Assembly: GCF_003633755.1 (NCBI RefSeq)
Contig: NZ_RBIL01000002.1
Coordinates: 992,001-1,056,000 of the forward strand
DNA length: 64,000 nt
Reading direction: 5' to 3'
From: Solirubrobacter pauli
GTDB lineage: Bacteria > Actinomycetota > Thermoleophilia > Solirubrobacterales > Solirubrobacteraceae
Shown: positions 31,084-34,609 of the stretch, in pieces
Layout: each line of letters opens with the position of its first letter
Numbering within the stretch: the stretch's first letter is position 1
Translations under genes and position numbers: made by a program
Notes under the pieces: model-generated
The model's input: only the letters and a program-made list of their open reading frames with translations
Told to the model about the DNA's origin: nothing
Databases searched by the model: none

Positions 31084-32655
31084 ATGGTACTTCGACCCCG
31101 CACCCGCCACCTGCGCCGCGCCGTCGTCGCGGTCGCGCTCGGCGCGCTCGTCGTGCCCGCCACGGCGGACGCGGCCAAGAAAAAGACGCCGGCGATCACG
31201 AAGGTGACGCCGAAGACCGCGTTCGTCGGCACGAAGCTGACGATCACGGGCAAGAACTTCAAGCGCGGCAAGGCCAAGAACAGCGTGCTCTTCCGTCGCG
31301 ACGGCGGCAAGGCCCTGTTCGTCAAGGCCGACGTGAGCACGACCAAGAAGCTCACGGTCGTGGTGCCGAAGACCCTCGAGAAGTACATGGTCGCCAAGGG
31401 CGGCCAGCCGACCGCGACGCGGTTCCGCATCCGCGTCCTGTCGGCCAAGCTCAGCCGCTCGTACACGTCCGCCAAGGCGTCGCCGTTGATCGGCCCCGAG
31501 CAGGCGAAGACGTCCGACGTCTCCGATGGCGCCGGCGTGCCGACCGCGCCCGACGGCGACTGCGACAGTGACGGCATCAAGAACGGCGTCGACCCCGATG
31601 ACGACAACGACCTGCTGGCCGACGGGCTCGAGCTCAGCCTGAAGCTCGACCCGTGCTCGGGCGACACGGACCGCGACGGCGTCGAGGACGGCTACGAGTA
31701 CCAGTCGGCGATCGACCTCAACAACGACGACTACCAGTCGCCGAACACGGCGATCCCGCACCCGTACAAGTCGCCGTACCCGAACCCGCTGTTCGCGGAC
31801 GCCGACAAGGACTACGACGGCGACGGCCTCGACCTGCTCGAGGAGTACAAGCTCTGGCAGTACACCTACGAGGTCAACCACACGGCCACGCGGACGCTCT
31901 CGCCGCTGTCCTACAGCGACGGCGCCCAGTACTCGCTGTCCGTCCTCGCGGGCGGCAACGGCCGCCGTACGCCGACGATGTCCGTGGCCGCGTACGTCCC
32001 GCCGCAGAACTTCCGCCTGTGGGTCGACGCGGCCGGGTTCGGCTCGGCCTGGATCTACAACCTGACCGGCCCGCACGTCGCGGTGCTCCGTGACCTGTAC
32101 GACATGGACCGCAACGGCGTCGTCACGACCACGCCGACGTACGACGGCCTGAACCTCACGACGAACAACCAGCGGCGGGCCGAGCGGACGTACTGGGACC
32201 TCGACGCGGACGGCTTCGTGTCCGACGACGAGCGCGACGAGGACGCCGACGGCCTCAACAACTACTACGAGGTCAGCGGCGGACCGATGTCGCCCGAGTT
32301 CTGGCGCACGTGCTACTCGAAGGAGGGCGAGTACCCGATCAAGTACGCCGGCACGAAGGCCCACGACGCCGACAGCGACGGCGACGGCATCCTCGACGGT
32401 GCCGACGACCAGGACTTCGACGACGTGCCGAACATCATGGAGCTCAGCCGCAACCTGGCCGGCGACTGGCCGCTCGCGGGCTACTGCGACCCGGGGGTGA
32501 CGCCGTATGACTCGTCGATCCCCCGCAAGGCGCTCGTGAACCCGTTCAACCCCTGCCTGCCGGACATCAACTCCCGCACGTGCCAGCGGCACCCCGTGAT
32601 CACGGACAAGTACCCGCCGTTCGATCCGAACTGGCAGCCGTTCGCGCTGAACTAG
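31084..32655 (+). CDS. Secreted IPT/TIG and calcium-repeat protein
   Basis: 523 residues. A signal peptide (about 1-32) is followed by an IPT/TIG Ig-like domain (residues 38-130: ITKVTPKTAFVGTKLTITGKNF). Several thrombospondin type 3-like Asp-rich calcium loops follow: DGDCDSDGIKNGVDPDDDND, DTDRDGVEDGYE, DADKDYDGDGLDLLEEY, DLDADGFVSDDERDEDADGL and DADSDGDGILDGADDQDFDD. The C-terminus has Cys-rich segments. It is probably a surface or matrix protein stiffened by calcium. It carries the same type of promoter as the pilus genes and has no ribosome binding site. It interrupts the usual pepQ-efp-nusB order. Confidence 0.85.
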   Translation: MVLRPRTRHLRRAVVAVALGALVVPATADAAKKKTPAITKVTPKTAFVGTKLTITGKNFKRGKAKNSVLFRRDGGKALFVKADVSTTKKLTVVVPKTLEKYMVAKGGQPTATRFRIRVLSAKLSRSYTSAKASPLIGPEQAKTSDVSDGAGVPTAPDGDCDSDGIKNGVDPDDDNDLLADGLELSLKLDPCSGDTDRDGVEDGYEYQSAIDLNNDDYQSPNTAIPHPYKSPYPNPLFADADKDYDGDGLDLLEEYKLWQYTYEVNHTATRTLSPLSYSDGAQYSLSVLAGGNGRRTPTMSVAAYVPPQNFRLWVDAAGFGSAWIYNLTGPHVAVLRDLYDMDRNGVVTTTPTYDGLNLTTNNQRRAERTYWDLDADGFVSDDERDEDADGLNNYYEVSGGPMSPEFWRTCYSKEGEYPIKYAGTKAHDADSDGDGILDGADDQDFDDVPNIMELSRNLAGDWPLAGYCDPGVTPYDSSIPRKALVNPFNPCLPDINSRTCQRHPVITDKYPPFDPNWQPFALN

Positions 32656-33188
32656 GTCGTGCTCTCGAGGGCCCGCTCCGTGCGGGCCCTCGTCATCTCG
32701 GCGGCCAGCTTCGGCGCGCCGTTGAGCGTCTGGAACACCACGCAGTAGCGCTCGGTGAGCTTGAGCAGCGTGGCGAGCTGCTCGTCGTCGGCGGGCGTGT
32801 CGACCTCGAAGCGCAGGCGGATGTCGGAGAACCCGACGGGCGCCTCCCGGTCGACGCCGAGCGTGCCGCGGAAGTCCAGGTCACCCTCGGCGTAGACGTG
32901 ACCCTCGGTGATCGGCACGTCGATCGCCGTCGCCACCGCCTGCAGCGTGACGCCGGCACAGGCGACGAGCGCCTCGAGCAGCATGTCGCCCGAGCACAGC
33001 AGGCTGCCGTCGCCGCCGGTGAGCGGATGCAGGCCGGCCTGGGCGATCGCGCGCCCGGTCTCGACGTTGCAGCTGACGCCCTCGCCGACCGTCCCCTTGG
33101 CCTTGAGGGTGAGGAAGGCCTCGCTCGGGTCGTCCTTGTAGCGGCTCTTCAGCGGCGCCTGGAGCGCCCTCAGCTCGTCGCGGTTCAT
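32652..33188 (-). CDS. OsmC/Ohr-family protein
   Basis: 178 residues. It has an OsmC-like beta sheet with LTLKAKGTVGEGVSCNVETGR, then LHPLTGGDGSLLCSGDMLLEALVACAGVTLQAVATAI, the helix that carries the first active Cys of the family. The second expected position is in LTERYCVVFQTL. These Cys reduce organic or fatty peroxides with a thiol partner. It is longer at the N-terminus than Ohr, closer to the YhfA/OsmC branch. The start overlaps the MarR-GNAT stop (ATGA). The stop is shared with the convergent gene in CTAG. Confidence 0.85.
   Translation of the reverse strand: MNRDELRALQAPLKSRYKDDPSEAFLTLKAKGTVGEGVSCNVETGRAIAQAGLHPLTGGDGSLLCSGDMLLEALVACAGVTLQAVATAIDVPITEGHVYAEGDLDFRGTLGVDREAPVGFSDIRLRFEVDTPADDEQLATLLKLTERYCVVFQTLNGAPKLAAEMTRARTERALESTT
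32667..32691. terminator. Strong hairpin inside the osmC 3' end
   Basis: GAGGGCCCGC-TCCGT-GCGGGCCCTC, a 10-bp perfect stem starting 12 bases after the stop of the secreted protein. It overlaps the last codons of the convergent osmC-like gene. Confidence 0.6.
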
Positions 33189-34069
33189 GGCTTGAGGGTA
33201 AGGGACCAGGTCTGGGCCACGTGGTCGTGGCCGAACGAGCGCTCCGGCGTGGACTCCGCGAGCGTGAACCCGGCCCGCTCGTAGAGTCGGCGCGCGGGGT
33301 GGAGGTTGTCGTTCGTGTAGAGCGTGAGCGTGCGGTAGCCCCTCGCGGTGGCGTGGCGGACGACCTGGTTGACCAGGGTGCCGCCGACGCCACGGCCGCG
33401 CGCCTTGGGTTCGACCAGCAGCGTTCGCAGCTTGGCGGTGGTGTCGTCGGCGTGCACGCACAGGATCGCGCCGACCTTCGTGCCGTCGATCTCGGCGACC
33501 CACGCCCGGTCCCGCTCCGGGTCGAAGTCGGCGACGATCCGGGCCACGAGGCGCTCGAAGCTCTGGTCGTAGCCGAACTCGCGGGCGTACAGCTCGCCGT
33601 GGCGCTGGACCAGCCACCCGAGGTCGCCCGGCTCGAGGTCGCGCAGCGTCAGCGTGCCCTGCGGCGCGATCGCGGCCTTGAGGCTCCGCATGGCGGCGAC
33701 GACCTCGTCGGGGTCGGGCAGCTCGTCGAGCACCCGGGTGATCTCGCCGGCGGACTCCGCGTCCATCTCCGCGAAGCGCGCGGCGCCGGCCTCCGTGAGG
33801 GTGACCGTCTGCCGGCGGGCGTCGACCGCGGAGGGGGCCTTGGTCGCCAGGCCCTGCTGCTCGAGCTTGGCGATGACGCGGCTGAGCTGGCCGGCGTCGA
33901 TCTCGAGCGCGCGCTTGAGCTCGGCGACCTCGGTCGTGCCGTGGCTGAGCTCGTACAGCACGCGGATCTCGGGCAGCGGGCGCGCGTAGCTTCCTCGAGT
34001 GAGACCCATGCGCGCCGTGTAGAAGCGGTTGAAGTCGCGCACGGCCTCGACGTGGTGCGTCGTGACCAT
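33185..34069 (-). CDS. MarR-GNAT fusion: winged-helix regulator with acetyltransferase domain
   Basis: 294 residues from ATG 34069. Residues 1-140 are a MarR winged helix (AVRDFNRFYTARMG, EIRVLYELSHG, DAGQLSRVIAKLEQQGLATK, DARRQTVTLTEAG). Residues 145-294 are a GNAT domain with the acetyl-CoA loop VEPKARGRGVGGTLVNQVV and ARRLYERAGFTL. This two-part architecture is known in actinobacteria. Two palindromes just upstream are likely its own operators. It is coupled to the OsmC-like gene, so the pair may answer to an oxidised or toxic amine ligand (inference). Confidence 0.9.
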   Translation of the reverse strand: MVTTHHVEAVRDFNRFYTARMGLTRGSYARPLPEIRVLYELSHGTTEVAELKRALEIDAGQLSRVIAKLEQQGLATKAPSAVDARRQTVTLTEAGAARFAEMDAESAGEITRVLDELPDPDEVVAAMRSLKAAIAPQGTLTLRDLEPGDLGWLVQRHGELYAREFGYDQSFERLVARIVADFDPERDRAWVAEIDGTKVGAILCVHADDTTAKLRTLLVEPKARGRGVGGTLVNQVVRHATARGYRTLTLYTNDNLHPARRLYERAGFTLAESTPERSFGHDHVAQTWSLTLKP

Positions 34070-34071
34070 GC

Positions 34072-34105
34072 TTGACAGGATCAACTACTTGCTTGACTCT
34101 GTCAA
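34072..34105 (-). promoter_or_regulatory. Tandem MarR-type operators
   Basis: TTGACAGGATCAA (34072-34084) and TTGACTCTGTCAA (34093-34105) are 13-bp palindromic boxes whose centres are 21 bp apart, two helical turns. They lie immediately upstream of the MarR-GNAT start and overlap the end of the preceding gene. Confidence 0.65.
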
Positions 34106-34609
34106 CTGCTCCTGGTCCTCCCAGACCAGCGACGAGCCGAGGTGCCCCGCCCGGATCGTGAATCCGGCGGCGCTGAGCGCGAGCAGCACGGCCAGCACCT
34201 TCAGGATCGTGGTCACTACCCGGTGCTTGACGTAGAGCAGGCCGACGAGCGCGGCGGTGAGGAGCACCATGCAGAAGCGCACGGTCTCGCCCGCGCCCTC
34301 GTGGTCCTTCATCTTCGGGTTGCCCTCGAGCCGCGGCTGGCTCTCCAGGAACGCCTCGCCGGCGCCGACCGTCAGCAGCGTCGCCGCGAGCGTGACGACG
34401 GCGAACGCGGCGAGCGGCGTTCCGAACAGGCTCGGCTTGGCGATCCCGACGAGGACGGCGATGCCGAGGATCGGCACGAACACCACGGGCACGTGCAGCA
34501 GCAACGGGTGCGCGGGCAGCCCGAACGCGCTGCTGATCTGGACCGGCCACAGCACGAGGCTGAGCACGGCCGCGACGGCGATGACGGTCTTCTGGGTTCT
34601 CAGTTCCAT
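34085..34609 (-). CDS. DUF2231-like membrane protein
   Basis: 174 residues with four predicted membrane helices (about 8-28, 38-58, 66-86, 115-150). LPAHPLLLHVPVVFVPILGIAVL resembles the HP..H.P motif of DUF2231, whose His residues suggest heme or electron transfer, though function is unproven. A soluble loop SQPRLEGNPKMKDHEGAGETVRF lies in the middle. The start overlaps the upstream peptidase stop by 10 bases, and the end overlaps the MarR operators. Confidence 0.7.
   Translation of the reverse strand: MELRTQKTVIAVAAVLSLVLWPVQISSAFGLPAHPLLLHVPVVFVPILGIAVLVGIAKPSLFGTPLAAFAVVTLAATLLTVGAGEAFLESQPRLEGNPKMKDHEGAGETVRFCMVLLTAALVGLLYVKHRVVTTILKVLAVLLALSAAGFTIRAGHLGSSLVWEDQEQLTESSK

What the first reader, a model, noticed from the sequence alone, without database searches (positions are those of the whole stretch)
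34072..34105. Tandem 13-bp operators two turns apart before a MarR-GNAT fusion
The boxes TTGACAGGATCAA and TTGACTCTGTCAA are 21 bp centre to centre and so face the same side of DNA. They overlap the 3' end of the membrane-protein gene and sit at the start of the fusion gene, so autoregulation inside an operon is likely. If the acetyltransferase domain senses or modifies the ligand, the protein joins sensing, enzyme and repressor in one chain with an OsmC peroxidase as output.
Basis: partly seen in the sequence, partly recalled or inferred. Interest (0 to 1): 0.5.

Follow-up and report, generated by a model that had tools for sequence, protein, structure and literature searches.

The report
Self-repressing acetyltransferase with paired DNA switches
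A bacterial protein that joins a repressor to an acetyltransferase very probably shuts off its own gene through one or two short DNA boxes; such boxes recur before distant relatives of the gene in many phyla, and where there are two they are usually two DNA turns apart.

Summary
The two 13-bp boxes (34072-34084, 34093-34105) lie 21 bp apart just before the ATG (34069) of a MarR-GNAT fusion in a Solirubrobacter genome. All 7 same-genus genomes searched keep both boxes and the spacing, including the one without the membrane-protein gene. Of 56 relatives (under 75% identical to each other; many phyla), 53 carry a TTGMC-N3-GKCAA box (at least 9 of 10 arm bases) near the start, against 0.77 on average (at most 4) in shuffles; 25 of the 53 have a second box 20-22 bp away. 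Eight of 8 plasmid relatives fetched afterwards have a box, though three of their five pairs are 25 bp apart.

The distal box contains a -35-like TTGACW and the proximal box covers the -10/start region, so the best reading is autorepression of a possibly leaderless promoter. Half-sites and spacing match a published MexR site.

OsmC follows the fusion only in this genus among the loci examined. The enzyme is the conserved output, probably detoxifying a small amine (inferred; ligand and substrate unknown). DNA binding is untested. The name exists in annotation; my searches found no paper on its function.

The parts
34093..34105 (-). distal operator box TTGACAGAGTCAA, overlapping the last codons of the DUF2231 gene
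   Evidence: a box at this place in 7 of 7 genus genomes; perfect arms TTGAC-N3-GTCAA
34072..34084 (-). proximal operator box TTGATCCTGTCAA, between the DUF2231 stop and the ATG
   Evidence: one arm base differs here, perfect in the other 6 genus genomes
34100..34105 (-). putative -35 element TTGACA (first arm of the distal box)
   Evidence: sequence; same place relative to the box in relatives; inferred, no transcript data
34077..34082 (-). putative -10 element GATCCT, 17 bp after the -35 and inside the proximal box
   Evidence: weak match; in single-box relatives G at +23 in 15, A at +24 in 17 and T at +28 in 14 of 28; inferred
33185..34069 (-). MarR-GNAT fusion, 294 aa, ATG start
   Evidence: MarR_2 1.3e-9 and Acetyltransf_1 1.2e-18; model pLDDT 84.8
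33668..34069 (-). MarR domain, about residues 1-134 (six helices plus wing; helix 59-71 in the place of the recognition helix)
   Evidence: D58, G60, S63, R64 and wing D83, R85 in 77-79 of 79 fusions
33197..33655 (-). GNAT domain, about residues 139-291, acetyl-CoA loop R224-G-R-G-V-G229
32652..33188 (-). OsmC-like gene, overlapping the end of the fusion by 4 bp; genus-specific passenger
   Evidence: OsmC 1.3e-17; 7 of 7 genus genomes
34085..34609 (-). DUF2231 membrane-protein gene upstream; its 3' end holds the distal box
   Evidence: next to the fusion in 6 of 7 genus genomes

Best explanation
The pair of boxes is the operator of the MarR-GNAT fusion itself. One fusion dimer binds each 13-bp box (extended consensus aTASTTGAC-N3-GTCAASTAt). 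The distal box covers the -35 element (its first arm is TTGACW), and the proximal box, two helical turns downstream, covers the -10 and start region directly before the ATG, so that RNA polymerase is excluded from a short-leader or leaderless promoter. In Solirubrobacter an OsmC-like gene has been captured into the transcript and is made together with it. Shown by computation: the boxes, their conservation and spacing, the domain make-up, the link to the gene, OsmC beside it only in this genus among the loci examined. Inferred: binding, dimer, repression, promoter elements, shared transcript, induction, chemistry.
For: Pair kept in 7 of 7 genus genomes, also where the upstream gene differs. 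Box (at least 9 of 10 arm bases) between -150 and +12 of the aligned start in 53 of 56 representatives, 49 of 52 without Solirubrobacter; controls: shuffles mean 0.77, max 4; coding stretch 2 of 56; far upstream 2 of 54. Second box at 21 bp in 20, 22 bp in 4 and 20 bp in 1 of 53; no other distance up to 70 bp holds more than 2 loci. Flanks not used to choose boxes are symmetric: T at -3 in 41 of 53, A at +15 in 45 of 53. Later check: 8 of 8 plasmid-borne relatives have a box. Perfect 13-mers elsewhere in the own genome: 3, all inside predicted ORFs. Recognition-helix and wing residues near-invariant. MexR PII has the same half-sites and spacing. GNAT loop and probable pocket residues near-invariant in 79 fusions and in 6 stand-alone GNATs, of which 4 have a divergent neighbour with a TetR_N hit, 2 of these below Pfam's cut-off: another repressor type beside the same enzyme. 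A co-directional EamA-type transporter follows within 30 bp in L063, L080, L100 and L127.
Against: No binding, transcript or activity data. 28 of 53 representatives have one box only, so two are not required. Three of 5 pairs among the plasmid relatives are 25 bp apart, not the same face. The -10 is weak, and a start codon lies 33-39 nt from the box start in only 25 of 53, taking for each the in-frame start nearest to 36. 3 of 56 have no box (L057, L095, L103). Off-target tandem matches with up to 2 mismatches outnumber the control (27 against 2 forward), 17 of the 27 in three Bradyrhizobium genomes, so other targets there are not excluded. In L010/L038 the box stands although the first roughly 80 residues of the MarR part are missing. 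That substrate and inducer are the same is a guess.
Confidence: 0.8

Rival explanations
1. The boxes are activator or dual sites: the fusion or another MarR-type protein bound there helps RNA polymerase rather than excluding it.
For: Some MarR proteins may activate; PMC8070244 (passages) describes sites over -35 or -10 with possibly positive effect.
Against: The boxes cover the putative -35 and -10/start rather than lying upstream; in the paralogue clade the palindrome sits close before the start, a position that suits repression.
Confidence: 0.1
2. The boxes are read mainly by a different, stand-alone MarR protein, and the fusion is only one of its targets.
For: The half-sites are of a known MarR type (MexR PII); 27 off-target tandem matches in 24 genomes were left mostly unexamined; a box remains in L010/L038 where the MarR part is truncated.
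Against: In 22 of 24 genomes the tandem pattern is found at the fusion gene (18 of the 24 were picked because their loci have pairs), and box and fusion co-occur across phyla while neighbours change; the paralogous fusion clade has its own different palindrome.
Confidence: 0.08
3. The GNAT domain acetylates the MarR domain or other proteins, so acetyl-CoA level rather than a small-molecule substrate sets repression.
For: GNATs can acetylate proteins; acetylation of a MarR protein (SlyA of Yersinia pestis) changing DNA binding is reported in the review PMC11254643 (passage).
Against: The conserved GNAT residues are shared with stand-alone GNATs that have no MarR domain.
Confidence: 0.08
4. OsmC is the main output and the system is a peroxide response like OhrR-Ohr.
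For: OsmC follows the fusion in 7 of 7 genus genomes, 74-98% identical to the window's.
Against: OsmC is not found near the fusion in 74 of 74 named loci of other genera; 23 of 23 homologues fetched from other genera of the family lie without the fusion, and only one shows a 9/10 box, 242 bp upstream.
Confidence: 0.1

Closest known systems
MexR and its PI/PII operator pair (Pseudomonas aeruginosa), MarR family
   Same: inverted GTTGA half-sites 5 bp apart (PII: GTTGACCTTATCAAC), two sites that overlap promoters, read in passages of PMC9892617
   Different: MexR is not fused to an enzyme (recalled) and controls an efflux operon; whether PI and PII are 21 bp apart was not checked (Evans 2001 not held)
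[quoted passage not shown]
   Same: same architecture; this name or 'helix-turn-helix domain-containing GNAT family N-acetyltransferase' sits on homologues on plasmids
   Different: an annotation only; no function, operator or ligand found in print in my searches
MarR of Mycobacterium smegmatis (Ms6508)
   Same: palindrome within -35 to -7 of its own start codon, no other target found by its authors in the genome (passages of PMC4143341)
   Different: different palindrome, one site, regulates ABC transporter genes; no fused enzyme domain mentioned in the passages seen
Repressor-enzyme fusions such as BirA and PutA (recalled, not looked up)
   Same: one chain is both repressor of its gene or pathway and the enzyme
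   Different: different folds, ligands and chemistry

Membership tests
MarR family | winged-helix MarR domain by profile | tested here: met
   MarR_2 38.5 bits against cut-off 27, MarR 30.9 against 24.6; six helices and wing in the model
MarR family | binds a short inverted repeat over its own promoter as a dimer | tested here: inconclusive
   the inverted repeat and its conservation were tested; binding and dimer were not testable
GNAT superfamily | profile match and acetyl-CoA loop R/Q-x-x-G-x-G/A (motif recalled) | tested here: met
   Acetyltransf_1 67.9 bits; R224, G225 and G229 in 79 of 79, G227 in 77; the 50 best Foldseek hits shown are acetyltransferases
GNAT superfamily | acetyl transfer to an amine | not testable with these tools
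   needs an enzyme assay
MexR-type operator | GTTGA/TCAAC half-sites separated by 5 bp | tested here: met
   the box core TTGAC-N3-GTCAA has the same half-sites and spacing as PII in PMC9892617; the outer base before the core is G in 24 and C in 21 of 53, so the core is met and the outer base varies
Ohr/OsmC peroxidase system under OhrR | OsmC gene as the conserved regulated partner | tested here: not met
   partner only in Solirubrobacter among loci examined
ArsN2, RimI and other named NCBIfam GNATs | score above the curated cut-off | tested here: not met
   best ArsN2 38.8 bits against 125, RimI 36.4 against 86.4; none of the 24 families listed reaches its cut-off

The most novel reading that the evidence does not exclude
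A widespread one-protein detoxification loop: the fused enzyme destroys the very molecule that its MarR half senses, so one gene with one or two boxes is a complete sensor, switch and effector; and the second box, gained or lost at least 16 times on the tree and mostly at two turns, tunes how sharply it switches.
Probability: 0.4. Interest if true: 0.68.

Novelty: new variant of a known kind. Interest (0 to 1): 0.52.

Why it matters
Its operator can now be predicted, which gives a handle to find the ligand (reporter screens) and hence the enzyme's substrate. Because relatives carry one box or two, with at least 16 switches between the states, they are a natural experiment on what the second of two neighbouring MarR sites does, a question that PMC9892617 lists as unresolved (passage).

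Tried and rejected
Wider regulon in the own genome: no sign found. Three other perfect TTGACNNNGTCAA sites lie inside predicted ORFs; one of them lies 65 bp before the aligned start of a small gene (STAS-like by eye, no call) but is missing before the best homologue in 4 of 4 other genus genomes that have one (2 of 7 genomes gave no hit). Perfect tandem pattern in 396 phylum genomes: 0 (the own genome also 0 because its proximal box has one base off).

OsmC as family-wide output: rejected. Partner gene constant across phyla: none found; nearest downstream gene on the other strand in 46 of 80, same strand within 60 bp in 11, same strand further off in 20, none picked in 3. That ORF picking, by codon-position GC, is crude and missed the OsmC gene in L053-L055, so I searched OsmC directly afterwards.

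Substrate by family name: none of the NCBIfam models listed reaches its cut-off. No solved chain matched over both domains among the 18 sequences listed (best stretch of each); the 50 best Foldseek hits shown are GNATs.

Literature: searches listed no paper that, by title, abstract or the passages I opened, studies a MarR-GNAT fusion; only open-licence PMC text is held. One search (MexR with GTTGA) gave nothing; MexR papers came through.

Rows dropped: L051 and L103 were left out of the tree and of the residue counts; two box-less rows (L057, L095) and the paralogue row were left out of the single/tandem change count. For the paralogue-clade palindrome I scanned 10 family loci (L019, L021-L029) and 6 of the loci L149-L159 chosen after looking; L150, L151, L152, L155 and L157 were left out because truncated, masked or without a clear palindrome. 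Of 17 plasmid records I fetched 8, from 6 species. For one search I gave 6 of 7 genus genomes (G133 left out) and 18 loci chosen because they have pairs.

Full report
What is there. In the window the genes M28 peptidase, DUF2231 membrane protein, MarR-GNAT fusion and OsmC-like protein lie head to tail on the minus strand. The fusion starts at ATG 34069. Directly before it, read on its own strand, stand TTGACAGAGTCAA (34105-34093), 8 bp, TTGATCCTGTCAA (34084-34072), GC and the ATG. The boxes are 21 bp apart centre to centre. The distal one lies in the last codons of the DUF2231 gene, whose stop is at 34087-34085; the proximal one lies between that stop and the ATG.

Conservation in the genus. 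Named relatives place the genome in Solirubrobacter (S. phytolaccae, S. deserti, S. taibaiensis, S. soli and S. pratensis). All 7 genus genomes searched, the own one included, hold the orthologue, and all 7 have both boxes at 21 bp within 40 bp of its start. G133 and G134 look near-identical, so about 6 are independent. In G136 the upstream genes are different (no DUF2231 or M28 match in the 12 kb taken), yet both boxes stay: they belong to the fusion. In G137 (S. soli) the membrane-protein stop lies directly before the distal box, so coding does not explain the sequence there.

Conservation beyond the genus. They were found by protein only. In all 80, 77 have a box with at least 9 of 10 arm bases of TTGMC-N3-GKCAA between -150 and +12 of the aligned start, and 63 of the 80 have a perfect one. 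After thinning to 56 that are under 75% identical, it is 53, and 41 perfect. Controls for the 56: 100 shuffles of the same stretches mean 0.77, at most 4; a coding stretch 2 of 56; a far upstream stretch 2 of 54. Without the four Solirubrobacter representatives it is 49 of 52. The three without are L057, L095 and L103. The flanks, which were not used to choose boxes, are symmetric too: T at -3 in 41 and A at +15 in 45 of 53. As a check on loci not used before, I fetched 8 of 17 plasmid-borne relatives, from 6 species: 8 of 8 have a box.

One box or two. Of the 53, 25 have a second box (at least 8 of 10) at 20-22 bp: 20 at 21, 4 at 22, 1 at 20; other distances up to 70 bp hold at most 2 loci each. 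The other 28 are counted as single. On a tree of 80 proteins, 42 rows are tandem, 35 single and 2 without; single and tandem change into each other at least 16 times (quick tree, 25 of 77 inner branches open). So the second box has come and gone often, and mostly at two turns. Against a strict rule, of five plasmid pairs two are 21 bp apart and three, in one Sinorhizobium and two Azospirillum records, 25 bp.

Promoter geometry. The first arm of the distal or only box usually reads TTGACW, a -35-like element. In the 28 single-box loci, +23 is G in 15, +24 is A in 17 and +28 is T in 14, and in 25 of 53 loci the in-frame start codon nearest to +36 lies at +33 to +39, the most populated of the 7-nt bins. 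In the window this is TTGACA, 17 bp, GATCCT, 7 bp, ATG. So the distal box would cover the -35 and the proximal one the -10 and start of a leaderless or short-leader transcript. This is inferred from sequence. The paralogous fusion clade, with one copy in the same genome (G000:C1:1916153), has CTGAC-N4-GTCAG close before the start in 16 of 16 loci scanned (10 family loci and 6 chosen after looking).

Is it a private operator? I searched 24 genomes (6 of the 7 of the genus and 18 behind loci that have pairs) with the tandem pattern at up to 2 mismatches: 22 have it at the fusion gene; the other two (behind L094 and L116) have pairs at 22 bp, which the pattern cannot match. There were 27 further forward hits against 2 with the reversed control, 17 of them in three Bradyrhizobium genomes; apart from the one in the own genome these were not examined, so other targets are open there. 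In the own genome the three other perfect boxes and the second tandem hit are inside predicted ORFs, and the one site close to a gene start is not conserved.

The protein. Pfam finds MarR and GNAT domains. The AlphaFold model (pLDDT 84.8, 11 sequences; loop 21-31 poor) shows a full MarR fold, a short linker and a GNAT fold. In 79 fusions D58, G60, S63, R64, D83 and R85, in the places of the recognition helix and wing, are kept in 77-79, which fits a near-invariant operator. GNAT residues at the acetyl-CoA loop and probable pocket (G148, D149, W152, Y161, E164, E172, W190, R215, R224, G225, G229, Y263) are kept in 77-79 of 79, and in 6 of 6 stand-alone GNATs from other genera of the family. Four of these six have a divergent neighbour with a TetR_N hit, two of the four below Pfam's cut-off; a fifth (L043) has a divergent protein whose start resembles those TetR proteins by eye and whose end is another GNAT. 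The same enzyme under a different repressor suggests that the enzyme is what is being controlled.

Neighbours. OsmC follows in 7 of 7 genus genomes, overlapping or within a few bp. It is not found in 74 of 74 named loci of other genera, each holding up to 3 kb on either side, nor in the 8 plasmid loci with 1.5 kb. In the wider family 35 of 146 genomes have an OsmC homologue; the 23 fetched from other genera have no fusion beside them, and only one has a 9/10 box, 242 bp away. The simplest reading is that OsmC was captured by this operon in this genus. Among other lineages no partner is constant in the scan I made; an EamA-type transporter follows in the same direction within 30 bp in four loci (L063, L080, L100, L127), which fits export or detoxification of a small molecule.

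What is known. The half-sites and their 5-bp separation are those of the MexR site PII, GTTGACCTTATCAAC, and MexR also has two sites (PMC9892617, passages); that paper names the role of two adjacent MarR sites as unresolved. The architecture has a name in NCBI annotation (PMC13295564, passage). My searches listed no study of such a fusion; subscription papers are mostly not held. So the parts are of known kinds; the fused, self-guarding arrangement with its conserved, often paired operator is a new variant.

How sure. That the boxes are functional operators of this gene: about 0.95. That they repress it: about 0.8. That the inducer is the enzyme's own substrate: about 0.4. Ligand and substrate are unknown.

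Noticed in passing
L047 5157-6023 (G000:C1:1916153-1916968): The same genome holds a second, distant MarR-GNAT fusion with its own palindrome CTGACTAGAGTCAG just before the start; a 1-Cys peroxiredoxin lies about 1.2 kb downstream.
   Followed up: partly
L041-L046 (L012-L017): Stand-alone GNATs 46-55% identical to the fusion's GNAT part, several beside divergent TetR-like genes with a palindrome such as ACTGAAACGATCGTTTCAGT between them.
   Followed up: partly
L043 5001-6032: A TetR-like start (by eye) joined to a GNAT domain, divergent from a stand-alone GNAT and followed by a gene that by eye resembles the peroxiredoxin of L047: perhaps a second way of joining repressor and acetyltransferase.
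   Followed up: no
L063, L080, L100, L127: EamA-type transporter directly downstream of the fusion in four lineages; the reading of L080 also picks up an EcoEI_R_C match and may be a wrong frame in part.
   Followed up: partly
L213, L217, L218: Box pairs 25 bp apart instead of 21 (Sinorhizobium and Azospirillum plasmids).
   Followed up: partly
window 34085-34105: In five of the seven genus genomes the distal box is also the end of the DUF2231 coding sequence (LTES[S/T/M]K, stop), so one stretch serves as protein code and operator.
   Followed up: partly
L010; L038 6161-6173: In G005 roughly the first 80 residues of the MarR part are missing between the box (TTGACTTAGGCAA) and the open GNAT part: a relative that kept box and enzyme but lost the DNA-reading helices.
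   Followed up: partly
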